Source of the DNA: Tyzzerella sp.
GTDB lineage: Bacteria > Bacillota > Clostridia > Lachnospirales > Lachnospiraceae
NCBI GenBank assembly: GCA_017465565.1
Contig: JAFTWA010000049.1
Span: forward strand, 1-37,771
DNA: 37,771 nucleotides
Direction of reading: 5' to 3'
This document shows positions 5,249 to 11,330 of the stretch, one piece after another. The position numbers and the translations under genes are program-made. The first letter of the stretch is position 1. Every line of letters begins with the position of its first letter. The notes under the pieces were generated by a model, which was given only the letters and a program-made list of their open reading frames with translations, was not told the DNA's origin and ran no database searches.

Positions 5249-5944
5249 TTAAATTCGCGGCAGTAAATTTTGGACAAGCCTTACAGAATGCTCGATTGCT
5301 TTCTTTTCAAATGTTGGATAGTCCATAGTCGCACTGTTGTCGGCTTTGTCCGAAATTGCTCGGATAATGACGCACGAAACTTTGTTGAGGTATGCCGCAT
5401 GTGCAATCGCCGCCCCCTCCATTTCCGTACATTTTGCCTGGAAAAGGTTTACAAGTCGATCTTTCACTTCTGAAGAAGATACGAACTGGTCCCCACTGAC
5501 AATGCGTCCTGTAAATGTCTTGATATCCGGATTCGCTTCTGCATTTGCAGCCAGCGCTTTTTCCACTAAACTCGCATCTGCCGGGAATGAGAATGTGTCC
5601 ATTCTTGGAACCTGTCCAATTGGGTCGCCAAAGATGGAAGCATCCATGTCATGCTCAACCAAATCCGTCGAAATCACCATGTCGCCGATATCGATCGCCG
5701 CATCGAGTGAACCCGCGATTCCTGTGTTAATCAAAACCTCTACATTGAATTTGTCCACCAAAACCTGGGCGCAGATGCCAGCATTTACTTTACCAATACC
5801 ACTTCTTACAATCACAACATCCTTCCCACAAAGCTTGCCCTTGCAGAAATCCATAGACGCATAAGTAACCGTCTCTTCGATCTCCATAGCCTGTTTCAAA
5901 ACAGCTACTTCCTCTTCCATTGCACCGATAATTCCTATAATCAT
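5249..5944 (-). CDS. mtnN: 5'-methylthioadenosine/S-adenosylhomocysteine nucleosidase
   Basis: Hydrolyses methylthioadenosine and S-adenosylhomocysteine to adenine and the thioribose or ribosylhomocysteine, in methionine salvage and activated-methyl recycling. The N-terminus MIIGIIGAMEEEV places the catalytic acid at E12; the CTEMEGAAIAHA motif binds the ribose and the ISDKAD motif holds the catalytic Asp. Length from the ATG at 5944 is 231 residues, as usual for the family. That start is preferred over 5992 because AGAGAGG precedes it by seven bases. It has its own promoter. Confidence 0.95.
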   Translation of the reverse strand: MIIGIIGAMEEEVAVLKQAMEIEETVTYASMDFCKGKLCGKDVVIVRSGIGKVNAGICAQVLVDKFNVEVLINTGIAGSLDAAIDIGDMVISTDLVEHDMDASIFGDPIGQVPRMDTFSFPADASLVEKALAANAEANPDIKTFTGRIVSGDQFVSSSEVKDRLVNLFQAKCTEMEGAAIAHAAYLNKVSCVIIRAISDKADNSATMDYPTFEKKAIEHSVRLVQNLLPRI

Positions 5945-5982
5945 ATGATAACCTCTCTTTTCTGGATTATTTTCTGATAAAT

Positions 5983-6011
5983 ATTTTAACATCCCTTTTA
6001 TTTCTTGTAAA
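5983..6011 (-). promoter_or_regulatory. mtnN promoter
   Basis: Minus strand TTTACA, 17-base spacer, TAAAAT, about 40 bases ahead of the mtnN start codon. Confidence 0.55.
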
Positions 6012-6454: not shown

Positions 6455-7348
6455 TTAATCCTGTAACATATCCAAATACATATCCAACCTTGCATTGATG
6501 TATCCTGCAAACAGATTTTCCATAGCCGAAAGGTTACGTTTTACATGATACTCATCGAATGCATTGTAGTAGGTAATTCTATCTGCAAATTTAATATCGA
6601 TAGGCGGGTAGCCTGCTTTCATCAATTCAAGGTTCACAAGCAGTCTTCCTGTTCTGCCGTTGCCGTCAATAAAAGGATGAATACTTTCAAACTCAATATG
6701 GAAACGAGCCAATTTTGTTACGATATGCTCTGTGCTTACAGTAAAATCATGTAATAGCTGTTCTATCTTAGGCTTGATAAGATACGGCTGCACAGGCTCA
6801 TGCTGTGCGCCCATAATACGTACCGGAACTCTGCGGTAGACACCACGGTCTCCCTTCTTGTCAACAAGGACAAGATAATGAATCTGCTTGATGATGCTTT
6901 CGCTAATCGGAACATTGTTTTTTACAAGTTCACTTACAAAATCAAAAGCCTCTTTGTGACCGACTGCTTCCATGTGGTCCTTTAGCGGTTTCTGGTCAAT
7001 CGTAAGACCTCGGAGTACCAAGTCTGTTTCTCGTAGGGTAAGTGTATTTCCTTCGATGGCATTGGAGTTGTATGTGTATTCTACGATAAACTCCTCAGTG
7101 AGCCTTGCCACTTCGCCCGCTGTCAAAGGTCTTCTACTGTCCAACTCTACCTTCTTCCGGTCAATTTGTAGCAAGAGGCTTTCCTTTGATTTATAACGAC
7201 CATCGGCTGGTTTCCTTGCACCTACAGGAATTTTCCAAAATCTTCCCTCCTGGTACGCACCGGGAATTTTCCCTTCAGAGCAAAGAACTCGGATTCTTCT
7301 ATCAGAAATACCCCATTTTTCAGAAGCCTGTTTTACTGTCATGAACAT
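6455..7348 (-). CDS. Fic family AMPylase with N-terminal DNA-binding-like domain
   Basis: A 297-residue Fic protein. The Fic core motif HPFIDGNGRTGR is intact at 224-235, so it should transfer AMP (or another nucleotide part) to hydroxyl groups of target proteins. The inhibitory motif SNAIEG is at 95-100, ahead of the Fic core, as in class II Fic proteins that hold themselves inactive. Residues 3-45 look like a small winged-helix or MerR-type domain (VKQASEKWGISDRRIRVLC). The start has GGAGGG seven bases upstream. Three copies of TATCGGAATAAT lie 38-92 bases upstream and suggest autoregulation through the N-terminal domain. No antitoxin gene is adjacent. Targets unknown. Confidence 0.9.
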   Translation of the reverse strand: MFMTVKQASEKWGISDRRIRVLCSEGKIPGAYQEGRFWKIPVGARKPADGRYKSKESLLLQIDRKKVELDSRRPLTAGEVARLTEEFIVEYTYNSNAIEGNTLTLRETDLVLRGLTIDQKPLKDHMEAVGHKEAFDFVSELVKNNVPISESIIKQIHYLVLVDKKGDRGVYRRVPVRIMGAQHEPVQPYLIKPKIEQLLHDFTVSTEHIVTKLARFHIEFESIHPFIDGNGRTGRLLVNLELMKAGYPPIDIKFADRITYYNAFDEYHVKRNLSAMENLFAGYINARLDMYLDMLQD

Positions 7349-7551: not shown

Positions 7552-7587
7552 ATTCAAAAAGGAGAACCAGACGCATCCGATTCTCCT
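7552..7587 (-). ncRNA. Short leader with terminator-like hairpin and a 9-codon reading frame
   Basis: On the minus strand AGGAGAA and TTCTCCT pair around a 14-base loop and are followed by TTTTT. The same bases hold an ATG seven bases after AGGAG, opening a nine-codon frame (MRLVLLFEL then TAG). A promoter lies about 45 bases upstream. The layout resembles a leader-peptide attenuator, but whether fic is its target is inferred only from order and strand. Confidence 0.4.
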
Positions 7588-7743: not shown

Positions 7744-7888
7744 CCAAGGGAAACTGTTGTGACCACTGCAACATCTGGGATTATACTCTCCCGAGTTTTA
7801 AGGGCCTCAATGTAAACGTTCTTTTATTTTTTTTATTTTTTATTTTCGTTTACTTCGATGAAGCAGTGGGCACAACACTTTCCCTTGG
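7744..7888 (-). ncRNA. Structured repeat element, copy A
   Basis: Two 26-base arms (7744-7769 and 7863-7888) pair with only two mismatches around a 93-base interior. The interior holds a second 7-bp helix (GTAAACG 7812-7818 with CGTTTAC 7847-7853) closing an AT-rich loop, and a conserved CTCTCCCGAGTTTTAAGGG block. On the minus strand a copy of the ECF-type promoter ends about 20 bases before it, so it may be transcribed as a free-standing RNA. Copy B differs from it by four compensatory pair changes. Orientation is inferred from the promoter. It is not a terminator of the usual kind, as no T-run follows. Confidence 0.55.
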
Positions 7889-7907
7889 TCAGATGTACCC
7901 TTTTACT

Positions 7908-7982
7908 ATATAGACACGCGAACTTGCAAAAACTGACGCGATTTTGCAAATTTTTTTAAATTTTTTTAATTTTTTTTGTTTT
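7908..7982 (-). promoter_or_regulatory. ECF-type promoter copy 2, upstream of element A
   Basis: Minus strand A-tracts, then GCGTCAGTT, 15 bases, GTCTATATAG. It closely matches the promoter at 8660-8735, about 750 bases away. The two putative promoter boxes are conserved and the spacer between them differs, which is what selection on a promoter would leave. No coding sequence follows this copy; element A does. Confidence 0.6.
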
Positions 7983-8011
7983 TAACCCATTTAATGAATA
8001 ATTTTTTGTTA

Positions 8012-8159
8012 TCCAGGGGAAAGTATTGTGACCACTATAACATCCGGATTTATCCTCTCCCGAGTTTTAAGGGTCTCAATGTAGGCGTTCTTTTATTTTT
8101 TAATTTTTATTAACGTCTAACAGTTCGATGAGATAGTGGTCACAATACTTTCCCCTGGA
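8012..8159 (-). ncRNA. Structured repeat element, copy B
   Basis: Perfect 27-bp inverted repeat (8012-8038 with 8133-8159) around a 94-base interior that shares the CTCTCCCGAGTTTTAAGGG and CTCAATGTA blocks and an inner helix (near 8081-8089 with 8112-8121) with copy A. It lies 14 bases behind the stop codon of the DUF6147-like gene on the minus strand, so it probably forms the 3' end of that transcript. It could protect or terminate the mRNA, or be a separately processed RNA. Confidence 0.6.
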
Positions 8160-8172
8160 GAGATGTCTGAAC

Positions 8173-8640
8173 CTACATCCAAAGAGAGCTTGTACATGAA
8201 CTACTCATATCTGTAGACGCATAATGTACACTACGTACGCGGTAGTAATATCCACTACTAACCCAAAGGGATTTACTAACTCCTGCCGTCAATGCATTTG
8301 TGTTTGTTGCTGAATAAGAAGTTACTCGCACCCAGCTACCACTTACTAAACGTTCCACGACTGCATTCACAGATACTTTACATCGATAAGCTGCATTGGT
8401 GATACCACCAACTCCAATCTTTCCACCACCTGCATCATTGATAATTGAATAACCACTTGCCAGATACACACCTCTAGTCTGTGATTCTGCATAGCCAATC
8501 AATGCATCCTCTGTCAAGAGTTCTGAAAATTCAATATCTTCATCTACAATATCTTCTGCCTGAACATCCATATGATAACCGAAGATACCTGTTACACACA
8601 TCATTGTTGCCAATATAAAAATGGTCAGTTTTTTCTTCAA
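8173..8640 (-). CDS. Small secreted protein, DUF6147-like
   Basis: A 155-residue exported protein. Residues 1-29 form a signal peptide (KKK, hydrophobic core, cleavage after VQA). A short acidic linker follows, then a compact Gly/Ser/Tyr-rich domain (about residues 56-155) with repeated beta-strand-like stretches such as TRGVYLASGYSIIND, and two cysteines that could form a disulfide. I recognise it as like the DUF6147 proteins of Lachnospiraceae, function unknown. The start is the TTG at 8640, seven bases behind GGAGGG; the ATG at 8658 overlaps the ribosome binding site. It has an ECF-type promoter and lies behind an anti-sigma gene, so it is a likely target of the ECF sigma factor encoded at 10773-11330. 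Confidence 0.7.
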   Translation of the reverse strand: MKKKLTIFILATMMCVTGIFGYHMDVQAEDIVDEDIEFSELLTEDALIGYAESQTRGVYLASGYSIINDAGGGKIGVGGITNAAYRCKVSVNAVVERLVSGSWVRVTSYSATNTNALTAGVSKSLWVSSGYYYRVRSVHYASTDMSSSCTSSLWM

Positions 8641-8659
8641 TTGAGATCCCTCCTTCATG

Positions 8660-8735
8660 TCCCTTTACTATATAGACACATGAACTGACAAAAACTGACG
8701 CATTTTTCAAATTTTTTTAATTTTTTTTAAATTTT
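8660..8735 (-). promoter_or_regulatory. ECF-type promoter copy 1, upstream of the secreted protein gene
   Basis: Minus strand A-tracts (possible UP element), GCGTCAGTT, 15 bases, GTCTATATAG, then a short leader to AAGGAGGG. It starts right at the anti-sigma stop codon. No good sigma-A -35 fits the TATATA here. Confidence 0.6.
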
Positions 8736-9546
8736 ATGGAAAATATAAATTTTCTAGTATCTCATTTACATTTTCCTTACTTAAATTAAATATCTGCAAG
8801 AAATAATAAACATTCTGATATTCAAATTCCGCTATCCAACGGCTATCTCCATTGTCATCAACATAATATTGCTTAATATGAATTATTGCCGAGCTTACGT
8901 CCTTTGTATATTCTTCTATTAATGTATCTTCTATATCGCCACCAATTGAACTGACTCTGTAATTTGGTCGCATTATATACGCAATCACTCCTACATTTTC
9001 TTGCTCATAGAGAATTTGCGCACTTTGAGTATCTTTATATATTACAATATCCTGAAACTCCATTCCTACTGGCATATAATACGGTCTCACTGGCGCAAAT
9101 TGGAATTCATCCTCTATCTGCTGATAAGCCTCTTCCTCGTTTACACCTTCTGATTCTTTCACTCTCTTATCCTCAGAATCTATATTGGTTTGTTCTCTTC
9201 CACCCAGCATCCACTTGACTTTCTCTACAACCTGCTCTGGTCCACCCATACTGGTCACCCCGAACATCATCGCCAATACCAGCGCAGCCGCAAGTACAAT
9301 CCATTTAGTCCATTTCCGTTTGCGCTTATATACTTTACCAAGACGGATGAGTTCTTTATCTTCTTCGGACAAGTTCTCATACGCCTTCTGCGCCTCGTAC
9401 TCCCGAATCTGCGCAAAAAGTTTGTCACGTATTTCATCCGGCGCCTTGAGATTTCGTATCTCCGGGTCCCGGTTTACTTCTTCCAAAATTCTGTCCGCTT
9501 CCTTCTCTGATTCCATTTGAATGAAGCGATTCATTTTATCATCCAT
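8734..9546 (-). CDS. Membrane-anchored anti-sigma factor, DUF4367-like C-terminus
   Basis: A 270-residue protein with an N-terminal charged cytoplasmic part (residues 1-80, including DPEIRNLKAPDEIRDKLFAQI), one transmembrane segment at about 83-101 after a KRKRK stretch, and an outside domain of about 160 residues with YYMPVGMEFQDI and YFLQIF segments as in DUF4367 proteins. This plan is that of Firmicute anti-sigma factors that hold an ECF sigma factor at the membrane. No zinc-binding HxxxCxxC is present. GAGGAG lies six bases before the ATG. Its sigma partner is probably at 10773-11330, with murG lying in between on the other strand. The secreted-protein gene follows directly. Confidence 0.75.
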   Translation of the reverse strand: MDDKMNRFIQMESEKEADRILEEVNRDPEIRNLKAPDEIRDKLFAQIREYEAQKAYENLSEEDKELIRLGKVYKRKRKWTKWIVLAAALVLAMMFGVTSMGGPEQVVEKVKWMLGGREQTNIDSEDKRVKESEGVNEEEAYQQIEDEFQFAPVRPYYMPVGMEFQDIVIYKDTQSAQILYEQENVGVIAYIMRPNYRVSSIGGDIEDTLIEEYTKDVSSAIIHIKQYYVDDNGDSRWIAEFEYQNVYYFLQIFNLSKENVNEILENLYFP

Positions 9547-9579
9547 GTAAATCTCCTCGTATTATCAATTTCGTTCCCC

Positions 9580-9608
9580 TTGACCTTTCTTGGAATACTG
9601 TTTAATAT
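9580..9608 (+). promoter_or_regulatory. murG promoter
   Basis: TTGACC, 17 bases, TAATAT (a TATAAT overlaps three bases further). It precedes the murG start by about 35 bases. Confidence 0.6.
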
Positions 9609-9642
9609 AATATTAATGAATCCCAATCATTGGAGGAACGCT

Positions 9643-10707
9643 ATGAAACGTATTATCTTAACTGGCGGAGGTACCGCCGGTCATGTTACACCTAATATTG
9701 CTCTTTTACCAACGCTGAAAGAACTGGGATATGATATCCACTACATCGGTTCTTATAACGGCATTGAAAAAGAACTGATTGAACAACTTGGAATCCCTTA
9801 TCATGGGATTTCTTCTGGAAAGCTTCGTCGTTATTTCAGCTTACAGAATTTCACGGACCCATTCCGTGTTCTGAAAGGATTTGGCGAAGCAAAAAAATTA
9901 ATTAAATCCTTAAAGCCTGATGTTATTTTTTCAAAAGGCGGGTTTGTATCCGTTCCTGTTGTCATGGCTGGCAAGCAATGCCACGTGCCAACGATTATCC
10001 ACGAATCGGATATGACTCCTGGTTTGGCAAACAAATTGTCAATCCCATCTGCCAGCAAGGTTTGCTGCAACTTCCCTGAGACACTAAACCATCTTCCAAA
10101 GGAGAAGGCAGTTCTCACAGGCTCTCCAATCCGTCAGGAATTATTATCTGGCGACCGCGACGCAGCCCTTAAGTTCTGCGGACTCACACCTGACAAACCA
10201 GTGATTATGGTTGTCGGCGGAAGCCTTGGCGCTGTTGCAGTTAATAATGCCGTCCGCGCAATTCTTCCAGAATTACTGAAAGAATTCCATGTCATTCATC
10301 TTTGCGGTAAAGGTAAGACGGACGAATCCTTGAAGGATTTGAAGGGTTATGTTCAATTTGAATATATCAAACAGGAATTAAAGGATTTATTTGCTCTTAC
10401 AGACATTGTAATCTCAAGAGCTGGTGCCAACGCAATCTGCGAACTTCTGGCACTTCATAAGCCAAATTTACTGATTCCACTCTCTGCAAATGCAAGCCGT
10501 GGAGACCAGATTTTAAACGCACGTTCTTTTGAACGTCAAGGCTTTAGCGTTGTTTTAGAAGAAGAAGAATTAACTAACGAAGTCCTTTTAAATGCAATCC
10601 GCAAACTCTATAAAGAAAAGGATGCTTACATAGATGCCATGAAGAACTCTTCACAACAAGATTCGATTCAAACGATTATCGGCTTGATTCAGGAAGCATC
10701 AAAGTAA
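9643..10707 (+). CDS. murG: MurG, UDP-GlcNAc:lipid I N-acetylglucosaminyltransferase
   Basis: Adds N-acetylglucosamine to lipid I to make lipid II at the inner face of the cell membrane. Length 354 residues from the ATG at 9643, which has GGAGG six bases upstream; the open frame reaches back to 9517 but has no start signal there. The N-terminal GGGTAGHVTPN motif, the HESDMTPGLAN segment, the GGSLGA loop and the C-terminal IPLSANASRGDQ acceptor/donor motif are all present. It stands alone, outside a dcw cluster, between the two halves of a sigma/anti-sigma pair. Another murG elsewhere in the genome is possible. Confidence 0.93.
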   Translation: MKRIILTGGGTAGHVTPNIALLPTLKELGYDIHYIGSYNGIEKELIEQLGIPYHGISSGKLRRYFSLQNFTDPFRVLKGFGEAKKLIKSLKPDVIFSKGGFVSVPVVMAGKQCHVPTIIHESDMTPGLANKLSIPSASKVCCNFPETLNHLPKEKAVLTGSPIRQELLSGDRDAALKFCGLTPDKPVIMVVGGSLGAVAVNNAVRAILPELLKEFHVIHLCGKGKTDESLKDLKGYVQFEYIKQELKDLFALTDIVISRAGANAICELLALHKPNLLIPLSANASRGDQILNARSFERQGFSVVLEEEELTNEVLLNAIRKLYKEKDAYIDAMKNSSQQDSIQTIIGLIQEASK

Positions 10708-10772: not shown

Positions 10773-11330
10773 TTAGGACCGACGCACAAGCTCATCAAAT
10801 TCTTCTCCGAAATTTTTATGTATCCATTTTCTGGCCCTATATAATCTGCTATAAAGCACATCTTTTGAGACACCCAATTCCTCTGCTACCAACTCTTGTG
10901 GCTTTTCCAGACAACATACTAAGTTTATGGCTTCATACCAAAGCTCATTCTCTTCACGCAAACGCTCAAGAATGCTCTTCTTTAATTCATCTTGCCTCTT
11001 TCTTTGTTCATCCATTATGTAGGCATCTTCCACACTAATGGTTGACGCAGAGTCTTCTTCCAATGCACACATCTCCGCCTCTATCTGCTCGTACTTTGTG
11101 TCACGAGTGAGATTAAATGCAAGATTTCTTGCCGTCCTCATCAGATAACCACGAGCAGACTTAATATTAGCTTTGTCCATATGTGTGTAGAACTGGAAGA
11201 ATGCCTTCTGTGTGATCTCATGTGCTAAATCTTCGTTCTTTGTATACTTGTAACTGATTCTATAAACATCATCTTTATAAGCCAGATAGATACTGTCGAA
11301 TTTTCCTTCTTTACTTGTCTTATATTCCAC
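10773..11330 (-). CDS. ECF-type RNA polymerase sigma factor
   Basis: A 185-residue sigma-70 family factor with the two ECF regions only: region 2 around residues 12-75 (NEDLAHEITQKAFFQFY) and region 4 near 140-175 (LVAEELGVSKDVLYSRLYRARKWI). The start is GTG at 11330 with AGGAG nine bases upstream. It follows a HIT-family gene by 24 bases and may be cotranscribed with it. Its stop faces the murG terminator, so the anti-sigma gene at 9546 cannot be in the same transcript. The duplicated GCGTCAGTT/GTCTATATAG promoters downstream are its likely targets (inference). Confidence 0.85.
   Translation of the reverse strand: MEYKTSKEGKFDSIYLAYKDDVYRISYKYTKNEDLAHEITQKAFFQFYTHMDKANIKSARGYLMRTARNLAFNLTRDTKYEQIEAEMCALEEDSASTISVEDAYIMDEQRKRQDELKKSILERLREENELWYEAINLVCCLEKPQELVAEELGVSKDVLYSRLYRARKWIHKNFGEEFDELVRRS

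What the first reader, a model, noticed from the sequence alone, without database searches (positions are those of the whole stretch)
7744..8159. Duplicated ~145-nt element closed by a 26-bp stem with compensatory base changes
Seen: copies A (7744-7888) and B (8012-8159) have the same plan, 26-base arms round a 93-94-base interior with conserved blocks (CTCTCCCGAGTTTTAAGGG, CTCAATGTA) and an inner helix. Comparing the arms position by position, four pairs differ between copies and in all four both partners changed so that pairing is kept; only two mismatches exist, both in copy A. Such paired change is the mark of selected RNA (or single-strand DNA) structure. Copy B sits 14 bases behind a secreted-protein gene; copy A follows its own ECF-type promoter with no gene between. 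Inference: a structured RNA linked to an ECF regulon, possibly undescribed.
Basis: partly seen in the sequence, partly recalled or inferred. Interest (0 to 1): 0.78.

Follow-up and report, generated by a model that had tools for sequence, protein, structure and literature searches.

The report
New structured RNA behind secreted-protein gene
A long hairpin-shaped RNA, absent from the RNA-family library, sits just behind the gene of a small secreted protein in many gut bacteria of one family, has kept its fold while its letters changed, and in this genome exists in two copies, one apparently made on its own.

Summary
In detail: both copies exist, and all four arm pairs that differ on both sides stay paired (random placement P = 2e-5).

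The element belongs to a conserved RNA family that reaches no Rfam 15 threshold. A closing stem of mostly 24-36 bp surrounds a 57-120 nt interior with an inner helix, a conserved ACAUUGAGAAACC-like strand and a second hairpin. It follows a DUF6147 secreted-protein gene in 9 of 13 genus loci and 17 of 28 family loci examined; a terminator follows in 16 of 32. The locus ECF sigma factor / murG / DUF4367 / DUF6147 / hairpin is syntenic across the family.

A model built without window sequence recovers both copies. In the stem G-U far outnumber A-C pairs (61 to 12, 38 elements), so RNA of the mRNA strand is selected. Among 299 family genomes 9 are hit, each beside DUF6147: not a MITE.

An ECF-like promoter pattern occurs at two places in the draft genome, before DUF6147 and before copy A. 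Best reading: a 3'UTR-borne regulatory RNA of an ECF circuit, with a duplicate freed from its gene. Transcription and function are untested.

The parts
8012..8159 (-). copy B of the structured RNA, 148 nt, 3'UTR of the DUF6147 gene
   Evidence: found by model R2, which holds no window sequence, at E = 5.5e-10
7744..7888 (-). copy A of the structured RNA, 145 nt, no gene between it and its promoter-like site
   Evidence: found by R2 at E = 5.4e-6
8669..8701 (-). ECF-type promoter-like site GCGTCAG-N15-GTGTCTATATA before DUF6147
   Evidence: the relaxed pattern has two places in the draft genome (four nested rows), reversed control 0; TATATA-type sites before the gene in 8 of 9 hairpin-bearing genus loci, and in 2 of 4 without hairpin, one of them 105 nt upstream
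7907..7939 (-). second copy of the promoter-like site, directly before copy A
8173..8658 (-). small secreted protein, DUF6147 (the true start is probably the TTG at 8640, behind a good ribosome-binding site)
   Evidence: Pfam PF19644 21.8 bits, just below its cut-off of 24; 12 of 13 rows of alignment A6, this protein included, match PF19644 at E <= 0.001; start site; 'secreted' from the N-terminal sequence, by eye
8734..9546 (-). DUF4367 membrane protein, probable anti-sigma factor
   Evidence: PF14285 above cut-off; NCBIfam anti-sigma hit far below its cut-off; role inferred
10773..11330 (-). ECF sigma factor
   Evidence: Sigma70_r2 above cut-off, TIGR02937 above cut-off
9517..10707 (+). murG-like glycosyltransferase gene, syntenic marker between ECF and DUF4367
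   Evidence: Glyco_transf_28 domains; synteny; the name murG is recalled from the domain pair
7560..7587 (-). intrinsic-terminator-like hairpin downstream of copy A
   Evidence: 1 found; shuffled mean 1.4, so weak on its own
5249..5992 (-). phosphorylase-superfamily gene (PNP_UDP_1), syntenic marker beyond the element

Best explanation
The element is a member of a new family of structured RNA. It is normally the 3'UTR of a gene for a small secreted protein (DUF6147), behind a promoter that looks like one of the neighbouring ECF sigma factor, and is often followed by an intrinsic terminator. It folds into a long closing helix (P1, mostly 24-36 bp) with a core inside: an inner helix (P2) whose loop carries ACUAUUAAC in many relatives outside the genus, an unpaired ACAUUGAGAAACC-like strand, a second hairpin (P4), and in many AAAGUCGUC back to P1. 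Most likely mechanism: sigma activation makes the mRNA, the long P1 duplex is cut by RNase III or shields the RNA, and the core acts as a regulatory or protein-binding RNA in the ECF response. In this genome the promoter and hairpin have been duplicated without the gene, which would give a lone transcript (about 345 nt to the terminator-like hairpin, about 160 nt if trimmed to the element). Shown: fold, covariation, RNA-level selection on the mRNA strand, place behind DUF6147, synteny, two matching promoter-like sites. Inferred: transcription, control by this sigma factor, processing, and a role beyond the mRNA.
For: Covariation on 7 family sequences: 30 of 41 pairs changed on both sides (shuffled mean 15.0), score 0.589 against 0.11-0.18 when slid. 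A second set of 9: 23 of 30 pairs against 11.4, score 0.530 against 0.07-0.12. Model R2, built without window sequence, finds both copies. G-U 61 against A-C 12 in P1 of 38 elements. Hairpin behind DUF6147 in 9 of 13 genus loci and 17 of 28 family loci and in 5 of 6 further named loci. Control: of 585 stretches of 420 nt, 15 reach a score of 18 and 14 of those are the element. R2 in 299 family genomes: 9 with hits, each beside DUF6147. Synteny. Terminator within 130 nt in 16 of 32 by a strict rule. Hairpin DNA more alike than DUF6147 coding DNA in 11 of 14 chosen pairs, for example 97.1% against 78.3%, with the core identical in that pair. Promoter-like pattern at two places in the genome.
Against: No transcript data, and neither window copy has a terminator within 130 nt by the strict rule. 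The promoter-like site rests on pattern alone. Most hairpins were first picked by an inverted-repeat search that scored G-U above A-C, so the percentage of paired cells, and to a small degree the G-U excess, are helped by the picking; the two window copies themselves hold no G-U in P1. DUF6147 genes at the same murG locus can lack the hairpin (L037, L040, L043, L046, L049), so it is dispensable; none of 20 weaker DUF6147 loci has it. In one genome that lost DUF6147 the RNA remains but its outer stem is fraying (L138), which fits a link to the gene rather than an independent role. The 12-nt complement of the core is found, in 8 genomes, only within the element in five, at one other place in one, and not at all in two, so no long trans target was found.
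Confidence: 0.6

Rival explanations
1. The hairpin acts only in cis: it protects or times the decay of the DUF6147 mRNA (3' stabiliser or RNase III site), and copy A is a by-product of a duplication.
For: Lies in the 3'UTR of one gene family; long perfect stems are good exonuclease blocks (recalled); terminators follow in 16 of 32. Where the gene is lost the outer stem frays. Lone copies were seen only here, and as the relic L138.
Against: A plain stabiliser needs no conserved unpaired core; ACAUUGAGAAACC-like and ACUAUUAAC-like strands recur across genera. The hairpin DNA is more alike than the protein gene in 11 of 14 pairs. Copy A keeps four compensated pairs and the core.
Confidence: 0.28
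2. A MITE or other mobile palindrome that inserted twice.
For: Terminal inverted repeats, two copies, AT-rich interior.
Against: No other copy in the draft genome, none in the phage or plasmid collections, one syntenic place in relatives, similarity runs past the ends, arms differ between species.
Confidence: 0.02
3. The arms stay matched through template switching at a DNA palindrome (mutational correction), without selection on RNA.
For: Arms are nearly perfect and evolve in concert.
Against: DNA correction should give no strand bias, yet G-U outnumber A-C 61 to 12 on the mRNA strand; the unpaired core is conserved.
Confidence: 0.04
4. 5'UTR-3'UTR pairing: the core strand AUUGAGACCC binds the ribosome-binding site GGGAUCUCAAU of its own DUF6147 mRNA.
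For: A ten-pair match with one bulge exists in the window and a similar one in L024 (read by eye from the letters).
Against: Over 25 of 26 loci own pairs are no stronger than swapped pairs (mean -15.8 against -16.0 kcal/mol, permutation p = 0.61; L022 was left out because its start was misplaced).
Confidence: 0.05

Closest known systems
sRNAs derived from mRNA 3' ends (review PMC9438474; search listing with start of abstract only)
   Same: Lies between a stop codon and, in many relatives, a terminator; one place per genome; often more conserved than its gene.
   Different: Closed by a long helix with a multi-helix core, in Lachnospiraceae; no processing or target shown.
icaR-type 3'UTR with RNase III cleavage in Staphylococcus (recalled, not looked up)
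   Same: A 3'UTR with double-stranded character and a possible regulatory role.
   Different: Own-RBS pairing is not a general feature here.
ECF-sigma-dependent sRNAs, such as those of the sigma-E envelope response in enterobacteria (recalled)
   Same: RNA apparently under an ECF-type promoter, beside a membrane protein that may be the anti-sigma factor.
   Different: No sequence or fold relation known to me; usually joined to a secreted-protein gene.
Candidate structured RNAs mined from human microbiomes (PMC8040213, passages read)
   Same: Intergenic RNAs found by covariation in gut bacteria; this element could be among the 16,482 putative models.
   Different: Supplementary tables could not be read; the passages seen discuss 5'UTR candidates and name no DUF6147.

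Membership tests
any Rfam 15 family | score above the gathering threshold of a family | tested here: not met
   0 matches in the window and in 20 relatives' loci; in 5 loci up to E = 5, six sub-threshold rows, of which two plant-type microRNA precursor models fall on the hairpin of L048 (29.2 bits against a threshold of 200, E = 0.022; 22.5 against 85), read as likeness of any long hairpin
MITE | several dispersed copies in a genome | tested here: not met
   two adjacent copies only; one locus per genome in the relatives that were hit
MITE | target-site duplication at the ends | tested here: not met
   flanks of A and B resemble each other beyond the ends but are not direct repeats round either element (by eye)
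intrinsic terminator | GC-rich stem with short loop followed by a U tract | tested here: not met
   57-120 nt interior, no U tract directly after P1 of the window copies; a separate terminator follows in 16 of 32 by a strict rule
structured noncoding RNA | covariation of base pairs beyond column make-up, on one strand | tested here: met
   both-sides changes, slid and shuffled controls; G-U against A-C
riboswitch | lies in the 5' leader of the gene it controls | tested here: not met
   lies behind its gene, with a terminator after it in 16 of 32
3'UTR-derived sRNA | transcribed with the gene, between stop codon and terminator | tested here: inconclusive
   position fits; no transcript data
3'UTR-derived sRNA | release by RNase and pairing with trans targets | not testable with these tools
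   the 12-nt complement of the core gave no shared target in 8 genomes; shorter seeds not tested
ECF-controlled RNA | ECF promoter at the transcription start | tested here: inconclusive
   promoter-like pattern at two places only in the draft genome, near an ECF gene; specificity not measured

The most novel reading that the evidence does not exclude
A new class of RNA, with a long variable-sequence closing helix round a conserved three-helix core, is the main output of a tiny ECF sigma regulon in Lachnospiraceae. It acts in its own right, as the lone, separately promoted copy in this genome suggests, and DUF6147 is its secreted partner.
Probability: 0.35. Interest if true: 0.85.

Novelty: new variant of a known kind. 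Interest (0 to 1): 0.72.

Why it matters
No Rfam 15 family covers this element at its threshold, and a conserved, covarying RNA with a fixed protein and sigma-factor partner gives a rare handle on its function. Neither partner family name (DUF6147, DUF4367) occurs in the held library of papers. If the RNA works on its own, Lachnospiraceae would have an ECF circuit whose product is largely RNA, and the natural lone copy in this genome is a ready-made test of it. It also shows that a palindrome with four paired changes, read from raw sequence, can lead to a family-wide RNA.

Tried and rejected
MITE or transposon hairpin: rejected by copy number, synteny and flanks. Known RNA families: none at threshold (sub-threshold rows dismissed). 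Plain terminator: interior too long, separate terminator often follows. DNA-level palindrome correction: not favoured, because of the G-U excess. Own 5'UTR pairing: no preference for the own partner. A shared long trans target of the core: none in 8 genomes. Viral carriage: a gapped motif had 0 hits; the 17-nt core had 1 hit, without closing stem or DUF6147; the only DUF6147-like viral hit covers 40 residues; no phage record matches the protein. Some hits lack a DUF6147 gene. L138 (R3 E = 4e-23) has a 69-residue ORF that looks like the start of DUF4367 (by eye) and no detectable DUF6147 between murG and a gene that looks like the TSCPD gene of the window. L144, L145, L149 and L150 (E from 1e-5 to 4e-3) are weak and were not counted as members. 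Dropped before counts: L032 (broken DUF6147 fragment), L035 and L036 (repeats of L029 and L027), L094-L101 (same contigs as genus loci); of the 27 rows that came without a locus, 20 were fetched and seven weaker ones were not.

Full report
OBSERVATION. Two inverted-repeat elements lie at 7744-7888 (A) and 8012-8159 (B). Position by position, 20 of 26 arm pairs are identical in both copies, four differ on both sides and stay Watson-Crick, and two are mismatched only in A. Random placement of the same ten differences gives four or more compensated pairs with P = 2e-5. Both copies fold far better than shuffles, on either strand. Differences are unevenly spread: 3 of 36 columns in the block that holds TACATTGAG and CCCTTAAAACTCGGGAGAG, 10 of 52 in the arms, 12 of 33 in the A-rich stretch.

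SURROUNDINGS. On the minus strand the order is ECF sigma factor (10773-11330), then a murG-like gene on the other strand (9517-10707), DUF4367 membrane protein (8734-9546), DUF6147 secreted protein (8173-8658), copy B, copy A. The promoter-like site GCGTCAG-N15-GTGTCTATATA stands before DUF6147 and, duplicated, before copy A. A relaxed form of it occurs at these two places only in the 3.2-Mb, 88.6%-complete draft genome, with no match to the reversed control. The exact 14-mer GTGTCTATATAGTA occurs only there too; ten other places have two mismatches, fewer than the 44 of the reversed control. A terminator-like hairpin lies at 7587-7560, downstream of A, though one such hit is what shuffles give.

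RELATIVES. By DNA similarity nothing beyond two 26-29 nt hits in the A-rich part is found in 98 genomes, the own one included. By way of the gene it is found: DUF6147 occurs in 10 of 10 genus genomes and 56 of 299 family genomes, the own one counted in both. A scan of 420 nt behind the gene finds a long hairpin (score 18 or more, plus L039 at 14) in 9 of 13 genus loci and 17 of 28 family loci. In 26 further loci it is found in 5 of 6 named ones (L102-L106, not L107), and with the core motif in none of 20 weaker ones, three of which have other hairpins scoring 13 or more (core judged by eye). As a control, of 585 stretches of 420 nt from 20 neighbourhoods and the window, 15 reach 18, of which 14 are this element. 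The arms differ between species, though letters like ACCACTGC recur in them; interiors share ACTATTAAC and TTACATTGAGAAACC, or ACCGAGAAAACACC in a second type, while some members (L023, L038, L044, L050) show little of either. In the genus the four loci without the hairpin are L021, L029, L030 and L031. Eight of nine hairpin loci, but also L030 and, farther upstream, L031, have a TATATA-type promoter-like site; in the family loci that pattern was seen in three of 28, as may be expected if each ECF factor has its own. The family name Lachnospiraceae comes from record titles of related loci.

STRUCTURE. An alignment of seven family members (A4) with a named structure of 41 pairs shows 30 pairs with changes on both sides (shuffled 15.0 +/- 2.3; slid 6-13) and a covariation score of 0.589 (slid 0.11-0.18). 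For the second type (nine rows, P1 only) the figures are 23 of 30, 0.530 and 0.07-0.12; one measure, further pair types, is not above shuffles there (64 of 500 as high). The support lies mostly in P1; P2 and P4 are short and thinly supported. Model R2 from the seven rows, none from the window, finds B at 5.5e-10 and A at 5.4e-6 among 30 matches over 41 sources, the antisense strand of some palindromes included. In P1 of 38 elements, with helices redrawn by a scoring that treats all non-Watson-Crick pairs alike, there are 1002 Watson-Crick, 61 G-U, 12 A-C and 31 other pairs. The strand bias says that RNA of the mRNA strand is selected. Two limits: most elements were first picked by a scan that favoured G-U over A-C, and they share ancestry, so the P of 2.4e-9 is too small. 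The window copies hold neither G-U nor A-C.

DISTRIBUTION. R2 in 299 family genomes hits 9, each beside DUF6147. R3 in 397 family genomes hits 12 and R2 in 392 order genomes hits 5. These large searches use strict filters that miss members, the window's own copies among them. Over the three searches 24 genomes are hit: 19 beside DUF6147, one where the gene is gone (G400, locus L138), and four weak ones without DUF6147. R1 in 10 genus genomes hits 6, each beside DUF6147, and finds a lone copy in none but the own one; it misses the known hairpins of G001, G002 and G005. Of 20 neighbourhoods, 19 of them chosen for their hairpin, 17 hold murG, DUF4367 and DUF6147 together, 17 hold the ECF gene and 15 the phosphorylase gene. 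On a tree of 72 DUF6147 proteins the hairpin needs 9 changes against 24.2 for shuffled labels; well-supported branches force at least 5, and the deep branches are weak. This fits an old trait with losses.

CONSERVATION. In 14 chosen pairs of relatives, which are not independent, the hairpin DNA is more alike than the DUF6147 coding DNA in 11, one of them by 0.001, and less alike in 3. In G132 and G430 it is 97.1% against 78.3%, the core being identical.

L138. In G400, between murG and a TSCPD-like gene, a 69-residue ORF resembling the start of DUF4367 (by eye) and no DUF6147 is found, yet the RNA interior is nearly that of G047 of the same genus (compared by eye), while the outer stem has lost pairs. 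This can be read as a relic or as an RNA kept for itself.

MECHANISM. Shown: a covarying RNA structure in the 3'UTR of a gene near an ECF sigma factor. Inferred: sigma-driven transcription, RNase III access to P1, a core that binds a protein or RNA. Own-RBS pairing fails a swap test. The 12-nt complement of the core is found only in the element itself in 5 of 8 genomes, at one other place in G342, and not at all in two. The lone copy A is the best hint of a role of its own, since it has kept pairing and core while diverging by about a fifth from B (81% identity); it is one case.

LITERATURE. No paper in the held library contains DUF6147 or DUF4367. Searches on structured RNA discovery, UTR-derived sRNAs and Blautia transcriptomes were read as listings with starts of abstracts only; passages of PMC8040213 were read, its tables were not. 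So 'undescribed' means: not at threshold in Rfam 15 and not met in these searches.

Noticed in passing
L144:1501-1655 and L145:1501-1695 (minus strand): In two other genera a long hairpin with GAAACTACAAAC or GAAACTATCAAC inside sits between a DUF5702 gene and the next gene, whose protein has a TadE-like stretch (by eye, recalled); it overlaps that gene's predicted start. It may be a distant cousin or a chance likeness (R3 E = 8e-4 and 3e-3; R2 finds L144 at 25 bits and not L145).
   Followed up: partly
L138 (G400): Genome where DUF4367 and DUF6147 have decayed or gone but the RNA interior remains nearly unchanged.
   Followed up: partly
L102, L103, L104, L106: A second, shorter DUF6147-like ORF, without an evident signal peptide, follows the first, and the hairpin comes after the second.
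   Followed up: no
L026:1254-1414: In one genus member the hairpin lies 80 nt behind the gene and the gene lacks the TATATA-type promoter-like site; the core is altered.
   Followed up: no
window 6455-7348: Fic-domain protein with an N-terminal HTH_17 domain beside the element.
   Followed up: no
G000:C47:911-1381 (L029): A second DUF6147 gene with a C-terminal GN extension and its own DUF4367 gene, without hairpin or promoter-like site.
   Followed up: partly
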